Below, piece by piece: positions 8,954 to 11,536 of a stretch of 64,000 nt of DNA. The first letter of the stretch is position 1, and every line of letters starts with the position of its first letter. The notes beneath the pieces are model-generated. The model ran no database searches, had not been told where the DNA came from, and saw nothing but the letters and a program-made list of their open reading frames with translations. Made by a program: the position numbers and the translations under genes. The stretch comes from Acanthamoeba castellanii str. Neff (lineage: Eukaryota; Discosea; Longamoebia; Acanthamoebidae): positions 25,250 through 89,249 of the forward strand of contig NW_004457415.1 of the NCBI RefSeq assembly GCF_000313135.1. Direction: 5' to 3'.

Positions 8954-11536
8954 ATGGCCCGCACCAAGCAAACGGCGAGGAAGAGCGTGGGAGGGAAGGC
9001 GCCGCGCAAGTATGCCGCTGCGGCGCAACAACAGCAGCAGCAGGGCAAGTCCGGTGGTGGATTCGCCAAGCCACAGGCCATCTCCAACAAGCGCGGCAGG
9101 AGATCCTACGCGAAGGCACAGGCCATGCCCAGTGGTGAGGAGGAGCAACAGCAGCAGCCACAGGCGATCCCGGAGATCACCTACACCGGCACCCACGACA
9201 CTGCGTTCTACGCGCACTACTTCATCACCGGCGACAAGGAGAAGGACGAGGAGGTCAAGTGCCACTACGCCCAGGCCCACACCCGCGACCCGCTCACGCA
9301 GGCCGAGGACTGCTGGGTCGGCGTCAGCTACAACTCCAAGTACGACGGCATCGGCATGAAGACCAACACGCAGGGCCGCCACAGCAACCGGCCCGCGCTC
9401 AACCTGGTGGTGGCGCTCGACATCTCTGGCTCGATGGGCGATACCTTCCGCGGAGACGACGATGACAACGACGATGATGACGAGTCCGAGTCTGTCGGTG
9501 GTGGGCAGAAGAAGCTCCAGGTGGCCAAGGACTGCCTGCTCACCCTCCTCGCCCAGCTGCGCGATGATGACGCCTTCGGCCTGGTGCTCTTCAACAACAA
9601 GGCCTCGGTGCTTCAGCCGCTGACCAAGTGGGCCGAGATCGAGAAGGTCGGCCTGGAGAAGGCCATCCTCAAGCTCCGCGCATGTGGTGGCACCGAACTC
9701 ACCGAAGGTGAGCGCCCCAGTTTGCTGTCTCTCTCCCTCTCTCTCTCTTCCTGTGACCACGGTCCCTAACAATCTATGATTGTTCGTGTGGCTGGCTGTG
9801 CAGGTTTCAAGGCGGCCACAAAGATGTTTGCCAAGGCCGAGGAGGGACCCAACAGGTCGAGTCGTGTCTTTTTCCTCACTGGTACGTGCTGCTTCATGTG
9901 TGGAATGTTGAGTGGTCGTATGTTTGTTTGTTTGGCTCATTGGCTCATTGACGTCTCTGTACCTGTCCGTAGATATGGAAGCTGGTTCGGATGACGAGAG
10001 AAAGTTCATCGCCACTGTCAAGCAGAATTCCGAGGTGTCGCTGTGGTCCACAATCATCGGCATCGGCATGGACCTGGCTCGCGACACAGTGGAGGAGACC
10101 AGCAAGACTCCGGGCTGCAACTACGCCACCGTCATCTCCAACAAGGACTTCCGCGAGATGATCGACAACGAGTTCGATTACACCGTGGTATGGCCTTGGA
10201 CCTCACTCCACCATCAACCCTCAGAAACAGAACGCTCACACTGTTTTCCTTCGCTATCAGACCCCCACCGGCTTCAACGTCAGCCTTGGTATCAACTCTG
10301 ACGTGTGGCAGCTTCACTCGGGCTACGGCTCGCCCGAAGTGAGCAACCTCCAGCCCGGCGGCCACGCTAGGCACTCCACCCTCTTCCCTTCGACCCAAAA
10401 CGAGAAGGGTGAGACTCGGGGCGGCCTCTTCCTGTTCAAGGTCAGCCAGAAGGAGCCCGCCGGCCTTGACTCGCCTTTCACACTCGTGTACGCGTCATCT
10501 CGTCGTCATTGGCGATGCGGTCTTCAGATGATCCTTGGCTGACGTAGAGCTTTTCTCATCCAGATCCAAGTGGGACAACCTGTTGGGTATCGAGCAAACC
10601 GACATCAAGCAGCTCCAGTTCAAGGAGGGCCACATTGATGATGTCGGCATCCGAAAGGCCGTACTGCTTGTATGTTAACCACTGGCTGATGCCTTTTCCA
10701 TTGGGAATCATAGACTCACCTTCGCCTGGTATGTCGCTGTGCAGGTATACTACACCGACTTCATCAGGCCGTACCTGGAGGTGAGGAACCAGGCGCTGGG
10801 TCTCCCGTCGATGGCCGCCACGGTCGCTGCGCCCATGCCCACGCGCTATCTATCGCTCATCACGCCTGCCAACCGCTTCCAGCTGCTCAATGACTTCATC
10901 GGTACACCCACCCAACGCGGGCACGCCCACTCACAAGATTCGTGGCGACTAACCTTAGACGGCTTAATTGTTGATGTTACAGCGTTCTACAAGAAGGAGA
11001 TGGAGGCCATCCAAGACCCTTCGCTTAACGACGAGCTGACTTTCCTCGAGACCGTTCGCAAAGTCGAGCAGCCCTTCTTCCCGGAGAAGATCTCAGCCGA
11101 CGTGGAGAAGGGAGGAAACGTTGGCGGAGAAGTCGAGGGCGAGAAGAAGAGAAAGCACGATGACGTGGAGCAAGGAGATCAGGTCAAGAAGGACAACGTT
11201 GATGATGAAGACGACGACGACGACGACGACGACGACGAAGCGGAGGCGATCAAGCGGAGGAAGATGGAAGAGGCTGACGAACAGCTTGCCAGACAGCTGG
11301 CAGCTCAAGAAGAAGCGCTCGAAGAAGAACAGCAAAGCGGTGTCGACGACATGCAGAGAGGCGATGAAGGCGACGAGGAGGCCAACGGCCAGTGCGTCGT
11401 TTGCTGGACGGAGAAGAAGAGCGTACTCTTCCTGCCCTGCCGCCACCTGTGCTCGTGCAAGGCCTGCGGCGACAAGACCACGCAGTGCCCGCTCTGTCGC
11501 AAGACCATCCAACAGAAGACCGACGTCTTCGTGTGA
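8954..11536 (+). CDS. VWA-RING protein with a histone H3-like N-terminal tail
   Basis: Seven exons (8954-9707, 9804-9881, 9973-10187, 10261-10487, 10564-10669, 10745-10901, 10983-11536) total 2091 nt and encode 696 residues. After the initiator Met the protein reads ARTKQTARKSVGGKAPRK, which matches the canonical histone H3 tail at 17 of its first 18 residues (T11 replaced by V). Lys4, Lys9, Ser10, Lys14 and Lys18 are kept. A Gln-rich linker follows, then a VWA domain with the metal-binding DISGSMGD (about residue 156) and GGTEL (about 245). The C-terminal part has an acidic run, basic RRK patches and a helical segment. A final C3HC4-type RING of the IAP/mahogunin style follows: CVVC, CRHLCSCKAC, CPLC. 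The RING implies E3 ubiquitin ligase activity; the tail suggests chromatin-reader or modifier contact. Both roles are inference. Confidence 0.92.

What the first reader, a model, noticed from the sequence alone, without database searches (positions are those of the whole stretch)
8954..11536. A RING protein that wears a histone H3 tail
The first residues after Met, ARTKQTARKSVGGKAPRK, are the histone H3 N-terminus with one change (T11 to V). They sit in the same first position they have in H3, so the free N-terminal Ala1-Arg2 readable by PHD and chromodomain proteins would be kept after Met removal. The H3 core fold is absent; instead a Gln-rich linker, a VWA domain with intact MIDAS and a C-terminal RING follow. 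A match of 17 of 18 residues at the extreme N-terminus is very unlikely by chance. This looks like a cellular histone mimic: it could recruit an E3 ligase to H3 writers or readers, or titrate them. I know of no described VWA-RING protein with such a tail, but cannot search.
Basis: partly seen in the sequence, partly recalled or inferred. Interest (0 to 1): 0.93.

Follow-up and report, generated by a model that had tools for sequence, protein, structure and literature searches.

The report
Ubiquitin-ligase-like protein with histone H3 tail
An amoeba protein with a ubiquitin-ligase-type zinc finger begins with an almost perfect copy of the histone H3 tail, and its relatives in sponges, rotifers, fungi and algae carry the copy too and keep its first eight residues very strictly, which points to an old and apparently undescribed form of histone mimicry.

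Summary
The gene at 8954-11536 (7 exons, 696 aa) starts with MARTKQTARKSVGGKAPRK, 17 of 18 residues of the H3 tail, then a VWA core with complete MIDAS and a C-terminal C3HC4 RING. It is no chimera and no recent H3 copy: of 216 rows listed by two homology searches, 112 carry the tail near their start, among them rotifers, sponges, fungi, a green alga and a chlorarachniophyte. On a tree built without the tail they form one clade. In 71 representatives under 60% identical in the core, residues 1-8 (ARTKQTAR) are 97% conserved (93% with four adverse rows added), against 90% for the best core stretch and 45% for the mean core column. K9 is lost in 22 of 71: the constraint looks like an H3 residues 1-8 reader, not an H3K9 reader. 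Of 68 members scanned, 46 carry a RING or U-box; three carry an H4 tail as well. The same genome has a second H3-tailed non-histone (zf-PARP). Best reading: a bait that brings a ubiquitin ligase to proteins that bind the H3 N-terminus. Mimicry is well supported; the mechanism is inferred. No paper seen in ten searches describes it.

The parts
8954..9707 (+). exon 1: start codon, H3-like tail, Gln-rich linker, first half of VWA
   Evidence: P0001 aligns through the join
8957..9010 (+). H3-tail mimic ARTKQTARKSVGGKAPRK (residues 2-19)
   Evidence: 17 of 18 to the H3 genes of the same genome; 0 of 19 differences to P0001
9011..9172 (+). Gln/Gly/Lys-rich linker (residues 20-73), mostly predicted disordered
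   Evidence: pLDDT under 50 for residues 1-57 of P0001; 5 of 54 differences to P0001
9173..11080 (+). whole conserved core (residues 74-545, introns included): VWA, beta and helical parts
   Evidence: model of P0001, pLDDT mostly over 90; fold matches 4fx5, ArnAB, ITIH1, Sec23/24
9401..10178 (+). VWA domain (about residues 150-346, introns included), MIDAS D156-S158-S160, T247, D278
   Evidence: PF13519/PF00092; motif positions
11081..11386 (+). acidic linker with KKRK and KRRK (NLS-like) and a predicted long helix
11387..11515 (+). C3HC4 RING finger (residues 648-690)
   Evidence: PF13920 3.6e-13; ligands C650 C653 C665 H667 C671 C674 C681 C684 read from the sequence
9708..9803 (+). intron 1 (GT-AG)
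9882..9972 (+). intron 2 (GT-AG)
10188..10260 (+). intron 3 (GT-AG)
10488..10563 (+). intron 4 (GT-AG)
10670..10744 (+). intron 5 (GT-AG)
10902..10982 (+). intron 6 (GT-AG)

Best explanation
It is a member of an old eukaryotic family in which a VWA core of a type also found in prokaryotes gained the first part of histone H3 at its N-terminus and, in many lineages, a RING or U-box at its C-terminus. After Met removal the disordered N-terminus shows free Ala1-Arg2-Thr3-Lys4 as H3 does. Most likely it is a bait: proteins whose pocket reads H3 residues 1-8 (PHD/ADD-type readers, or K4 writers and erasers) dock on it and are ubiquitinated by the attached E3 domain, so that their level or activity on chromatin is adjusted. 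Shown here: the tail, its position, its conservation in the family, the one clade, the domains. Inferred: Met removal, nuclear location, binding, ubiquitination. I hold the mimicry itself at about 0.95 and the bait-for-E3 mechanism at about 0.5.
For: Tail in 56 of 120 rows listed and 56 of 96 new rows, by a loose pattern; ARTKQTAR exact in 98 of these 112. With the window, 113 rows: the tail follows the first Met in 104; the other 9 have extra residues before an internal MARTKQ or MARSKQ-like start that also begins with Met. One clade against 21 tail-less prokaryote-like rows, SH-aLRT 100, on a tree built without the tail. In 71 representatives residues 1-8 average 0.968; the best 8 core columns (ALDISGSM) 0.896; core mean 0.447. 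Adding the four adverse rows of the clade, two of them counted as mismatches throughout, gives 0.930. Fewest changes on the tree of the 71: R2 0, Q5 0, T3 1, T6 1, A7 2, R8 2, A1 3, K4 8, but K9 17, K14 13, K18 27. Two unrelated E3 types on one core: U-box in 35 and RING in 11 of 68. Three members also carry an H4 tail. Twenty PHD matches in the own genome, a lower bound. Tail predicted disordered.
Against: No binding, localisation or ubiquitination data. 22 of 68 members show no RING or U-box in Pfam, among them all four named sponge proteins, so an E3 is not needed in every lineage, unless they work with a partner; some records may be cut short. P0031, P0035 and P0038 of the rotifer group and P0051 have a decayed tail, with R2, K4 or R8 replaced in the first three. 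Four of 71 have Gly at position 1. The pattern that picked tailed rows itself demands R2 and Q5 and limits residues 3, 4 and 6-8, so their constancy in the 71 is partly built in; one search is the check on that. An algal VWA protein (P0203) without tail falls among the prokaryote-like rows, so not every eukaryotic relative of the core has the tail.
Confidence: 0.5

Rival explanations
1. Substrate rather than bait: H3-modifying enzymes mark the tail (K4 methylation, T3 phosphorylation by a haspin-like kinase, acetylation), and the marks switch the E3 or VWA protein on or off or tie it to chromatin state.
For: T3 is T in 70 and S in 1 of 71, so a phospho-acceptor is kept in all 71; R2, Q5, T6 and R8 hardly change.
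Against: K4 is Arg in 8 of 71, with 8 changes on the tree, so K4 methylation cannot be general; K9 is lost in 22 of 71. No haspin match over the cut-off in the own genome (two weaker ones), though that search goes exon by exon and is not conclusive.
Confidence: 0.25
2. Decoy without ubiquitination: the protein is a sponge or scaffold that keeps H3 readers or writers in a complex held by the VWA core; the E3 domain, where present, serves another target.
For: E3 domain missing in 22 of 68 members while the tail stays; H4 tails in three members look like a broader imitation of nucleosome tails.
Against: U-box or RING, two unrelated types, in 46 of 68 argues that ubiquitination matters in most of the members scanned.
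Confidence: 0.2
3. The tail is only a nuclear-import, DNA-binding or stability signal, and the likeness to H3 carries no reader function.
For: The tail is basic, and H3 tails can bind DNA (recalled).
Against: A basic signal would not keep T3, Q5, T6 and A7 in 69 or more of 71 while letting K9, K14 and K18 change often (part of this is built into the row selection). Basic NLS-like clusters exist elsewhere in the protein.
Confidence: 0.04
4. Artefact: assembly chimera, wrong start codon or chance.
For: None found.
Against: Same tail at the same place in 112 other rows from many sources; in-frame stop just upstream and a chance probability near 1e-19.
Confidence: 0.01

Closest known systems
SNAG-domain N-termini (SNAI1, GFI1, INSM1), H3-tail mimics that enter LSD1 (recalled; search listing only)
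   Same: N-terminal peptide after Met that imitates the H3 start to recruit a chromatin enzyme
   Different: SNAG is a loose likeness on zinc-finger repressors (recalled); here 17 of 18 H3 residues are kept, and 18 of 18 in 38 of 112 relatives, on a VWA protein
H3K9-like short motifs of EHMT1/2 targets, histone mimicry (PMC10611923, passages read)
   Same: Non-histone cellular proteins imitating an H3 tail stretch
   Different: Those are motifs of about ten residues around a K9-like lysine; here the whole N-terminus is copied and K9 is one of the less conserved sites
UHRF1, a RING E3 that reads the H3 tail (recalled; listed)
   Same: Couples the H3 N-terminus to a RING E3
VIT/vWFA proteins such as Dictyostelium Vwa1 and human VWA5A (PMC10539598, passages read)
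   Same: Intracellular VWA proteins; Vwa1 works with an F-box protein that has a RING-like domain
   Different: No VIT domain here; the terms histone and chromatin do not occur in that paper's main text
Prokaryotic VWA proteins
   Same: Homologous core: the best matches cover mostly P0001 residues 72-550
   Different: No H3-tail string belonging to them in 57 of 57 loci scanned; none of the 57 matches reaches the RING or residues 1-22 (a capped list)

Membership tests
Histone H3 | N-terminal tail ARTKQTARKS... | tested here: met
   17 of 18
Histone H3 | Histone fold | tested here: not met
   No histone family in Pfam; the model of P0001 shows a VWA core and RING
VWA domain proteins | VWA fold with MIDAS DxSxS/T/D | tested here: met
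   PF13519, PF00092; motif; fold search
RING E3 ligases (C3HC4) | Eight zinc ligands, RING profile over cut-off | tested here: met
   PF13920 49.5 bits against cut-off 27; pattern
RING E3 ligases (C3HC4) | Ubiquitin transfer with an E2 | not testable with these tools
   biochemistry needed
Histone mimics (functional sense) | Sequence likeness beyond chance, kept by selection | tested here: met
Histone mimics (functional sense) | Bound or modified by histone-tail proteins | not testable with these tools
   no interaction data
VIT/vWFA family (ITIH, VWA5A, PARP4) | N-terminal VIT domain | tested here: not met
   no VIT family at E 0.001 for the window protein or among the families found in 68 members

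The most novel reading that the evidence does not exclude
A class of baited ubiquitin ligases spread over several eukaryotic supergroups: proteins that wear the H3 tail, and in some lineages the H4 tail as well, present a nucleosome-like lure to chromatin readers and writers and mark them for removal or regulation. Not seen so far in the usual model organisms, the class would be a missing layer of control over the readers of the histone code.
Probability: 0.35. Interest if true: 0.96.

Novelty: new variant of a known kind. Interest (0 to 1): 0.9.

Why it matters
Histone mimicry is known mainly from viruses, bacterial effectors and short motifs (recalled, apart). A host family that keeps the H3 start across several eukaryotic supergroups, often with an E3 domain, would be a built-in cellular regulator of histone-tail readers. 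It is also a natural experiment on which tail residues a reader needs once nucleosome packing no longer constrains them: residues 1-8, with K4 replaced by R in 8 of 71 representatives and by nothing else there. Antibodies to the H3 N-terminus could cross-react with such proteins.

Tried and rejected
Recent copy of an H3 gene: rejected by codons. Chimera or wrong start: rejected. Paralogs in the own genome: a search with the core found only this gene (7 exon matches, all here; 15 candidates scored). Viral origin: 313 pattern stretches in viral contigs, none encoding a relative of A1. H3K9/HP1-type mimicry as the main function: disfavoured by 22 of 71 without K9 (six of the 71 tails have small indels or shifts near residues 9-14, so sites after 8 are slightly under-counted). 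Mimic of H3 K18/K23 ubiquitination sites: disfavoured, K18 in 42 and K23 in 24 of 71. BIR readers: no match, but the control genomes were silent too, so inconclusive. H2A and H2B tails: no score clearly above the reversed-query control. My regular-expression count of U-boxes was too strict; I use Pfam. wrongly let two rows (P0219, P0250) into the representatives; repeated as without them. The 68 members scanned are the list without those two, with P0001 standing for the window, not the 71. Twenty rows of the rotifer group were dropped from the tree as near-copies. That tree used the quick method, and the program warned of uneven letter make-up in many rows. Homology searches scored about 8,000 candidates each and list only the best 120 of 256, of 130 and of 3,699 rows. 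NCBIfam: no family over its cut-off for 7 proteins. Papers: ten searches of an open-access library; one search looked for a precedent, not for the family; some searches listed 20 of 74, 12 of 17 and 15 of 376 papers. No listed paper describes the family; papers not listed, or outside the library, could. The paper was not held.

Full report
What is there. The window lies on contig C143 of a 38.4-Mb, 250-contig genome. The genome is an Acanthamoeba: another of its proteins is 100% identical, over the 86% of the query part aligned, to an NCBI record whose name begins with Acanthamo (P0217). The gene at 8954-11536 has seven exons with GT-AG introns and encodes 696 residues. It opens MARTKQTARKSVGGKAPRK, 17 of 18 residues of H3 after Met. 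A Gln-rich linker, a VWA domain with complete MIDAS, an acidic linker with KKRK and KRRK, and a C3HC4 RING follow. An in-frame stop lies 9 codons above the ATG, with no other in-frame ATG between. By composition alone a 17-of-18 match at a given start has a probability of about 1e-19.

Not a recent copy. The two H3 genes found in the genome (C79, C90) share 7 and 8 of 18 tail codons with this gene, where codon usage alone predicts 9.2; 10 and 9 codons differ silently and 1 differs in meaning. The DNA is no more alike than codon usage predicts while the protein is nearly identical, which means long purifying selection on the tail. Against P0001, a 92% identical relative, differences are 0 of 19 in the tail, 5 of 54 in the linker, 1 of 76 before the VWA, 2 of 195 in the VWA, 4 of 199 in the beta/helical part, 18 of 87 in the acidic linker and 2 of 56 in the RING segment: the tail is as fixed as the folded parts.

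A family, not an oddity. A search with the whole protein gave 256 proteins, the best 120 listed; 56 of these 120 have the tail within their first 60 residues, by a loose pattern. A profile of fifteen distant members gave 130, the best 120 listed, of which 96 were new and 56 of the 96 tailed. Of the 112, 98 have ARTKQTAR exactly and 38 the full 18 residues. Named holders of the tail are bdelloid rotifers (Rotaria, Adineta), sponges (Oscarella, Corticium, Sycon, Oopsacas), fungi (Endogone, Jimgerdemannia, Cladochytrium), the green alga Cymbomonas and the chlorarachniophyte Chlorarachnion reptans. Others come from EukProt, MMETSP and metagenome records, most without a name. Three tail-bearing rows without VWA (P0207, P0213, P0214) carry histone domains in their Pfam columns and were left out.

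One clade. On a tree of 126 rows built without the tail, the 93 tailed rows given to it fall on one side of a fully supported branch, with 21 prokaryote-like rows on the other, one of them from the alga Auxenochlorella (P0203). Twelve rows without a matching tail also lie inside the clade. P0031 and P0038 have a decayed tail (MGHTQQTACKS). P0051, which I had first labelled bacterial, has at most a remnant. P0123 has TARKSSGGHAPSEIR behind an unrelated start. The other eight begin in the linker or later, as cut-short records would; for P0158 and P0182, which begin just before the VWA, I cannot tell truncation from loss. So of the 97 rows of the clade that reach this region, 93 match the tail pattern. 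The prokaryotic relatives match mostly P0001 residues 72-550; three alignments start at 23, 36 and 39 in the linker and none covers residues 1-22. None of the 57 loci carries the tail. No viral contig encodes a relative of A1.

What is conserved. In 71 representatives under 60% identical in the core, residues 1-8 average 0.968 consensus frequency and residues 9-18 0.837; the core averages 0.447 and its best eight columns (ALDISGSM, the MIDAS) 0.896. R2 and Q5 are kept in 71 of 71, T3 and T6 in 70, A7 and R8 in 69, A1 in 67 (else Gly), K4 in 63 (else Arg). K9 is kept in 49, K14 in 58, K18 in 42. One caution: the pattern that picked the rows demands R2 and Q5 and limits residues 3, 4 and 6-8. 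With the four adverse rows of the clade added, P0031 and P0038 with their own letters and P0051 and P0123 counted as mismatches throughout, the mean for residues 1-8 is 0.930, still above the MIDAS. P0035, tailed by the pattern, has Q at K4 and C at R8. Fewest changes on the tree of the 71 are 0 for R2 and Q5, 1 for T3 and T6, 2 for A7 and R8, 3 for A1, 8 for K4, but 17 for K9, 15 for T11, 13 for K14 and 27 for K18. This looks like a pocket for the H3 N-terminus as used by PHD-type readers (established knowledge: they hold Ala1, Arg2 and Lys4). It does not look like an H3K9 mimic.

Extra histone pieces. Four members keep H3's KPHRYRPGTVALREI stretch or part of it behind the tail (P0028, P0044, P0045, P0048), and P0042 keeps a shorter piece that only equals the best reversed control. 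P0045, P0048 and P0032 also carry an H4-tail stretch such as GLGKGGAKRHRKVLRDNI, with scores 98, 77 and 69 against at most 59 for the reversed query; the next, P0166 with 56, is within the control. Many members found keep H3 as far as about residue 26. P0046 ends in three QTARK repeats and P0130 has RTKQTAR near its C-terminus. A fusion with an H3 gene that later shrank explains the H3 pieces; the H4 pieces need a further event.

E3 domains. Of 68 members scanned, 35 match a U-box, 11 a RING (9 PF13920, 3 PF00097, one of them both) and 22 neither. Two unrelated E3 types on one core suggest that ubiquitin transfer has been kept or regained by different means; the 22 without one, four named sponges among them, count against its being needed everywhere.

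Structure. The model of P0001 (pLDDT 81.8) has residues 1-57 disordered, a confident core and a confident RING. The core resembles 4fx5, the archaeal ArnAB complex, ITIH1 and Sec23/24, which combine a VWA with beta and helical parts (query TM-scores of about 0.2-0.35, so the overall likeness is moderate). A profile of 46 rows finds ITIH4 and other VWA chains in the PDB and, through the tail, histone H3 chains (180 sequences matched, best 60 shown).

Second case in the genome. A protein on C146 has an exact 18-of-18 H3 tail before a zf-PARP finger (PF00645, 1.2e-14). The NCBI record of the same protein (P0217) starts at the next Met of my model, so it lacks the tail, as does the 89% relative P0218, from a 1,078-base record; P0219, which aligns at 56% identity, has it. 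An ankyrin protein on C175 has the internal stretch ARTKQTARKVWPGNAPKKMA, and a 228-aa protein model on C148 starts MARTKQAARK.

How it probably works. The disordered tail offers the H3 start; a reader, writer or eraser docks; the RING ubiquitinates it. The tail is shown; docking and ubiquitination are inferred. The substrate and scaffold rivals stay open, and members without an E3 domain speak for the scaffold rival in their lineages.

Literature. Ten searches listed no account of the family (calls and limits are in Tried and rejected). I read passages of PMC10611923 and PMC10539598, searched PMC4751559 for six terms and found none, and saw the rest only as listings.

Noticed in passing
G000 contig C146:114222-114293 (-), L004/L037: zf-PARP protein with an exact 18-of-18 H3 tail; the NCBI Acanthamoeba record P0217 starts at the next Met and lacks it, while the relative P0219 (56% identity in the aligned part) has it.
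   Followed up: partly
G000 contig C175:21698-21760 (-), L005/L036: Long ankyrin-repeat protein with an internal H3-tail-like stretch ARTKQTARKVWPGNAPKKMA, 15 of 20 to the genome's own H3 by my count.
   Followed up: partly
G000 contig C148:236944-236963 (-), L013/L099: 228-aa protein model starting MARTKQAARK, no Pfam family at E 0.1.
   Followed up: partly
P0045, P0048, P0032 (family members, protein residues 28-73): An H4-tail stretch follows the H3 tail, so some members imitate two histones.
   Followed up: partly
P0046 residues 690-709; P0130 residues 632-642: Second H3-like stretches at the C-terminus: three QTARK repeats, and RTKQTAR.
   Followed up: no
window 7850-8344 (-): CS-domain protein (PF04969, 164 aa), divergent neighbour of the tailed gene.
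   Followed up: no
window 11699 to about 12860 (+): Inward-rectifier-type potassium channel gene (PF01007 over cut-off on exons joined by eye).
   Followed up: no
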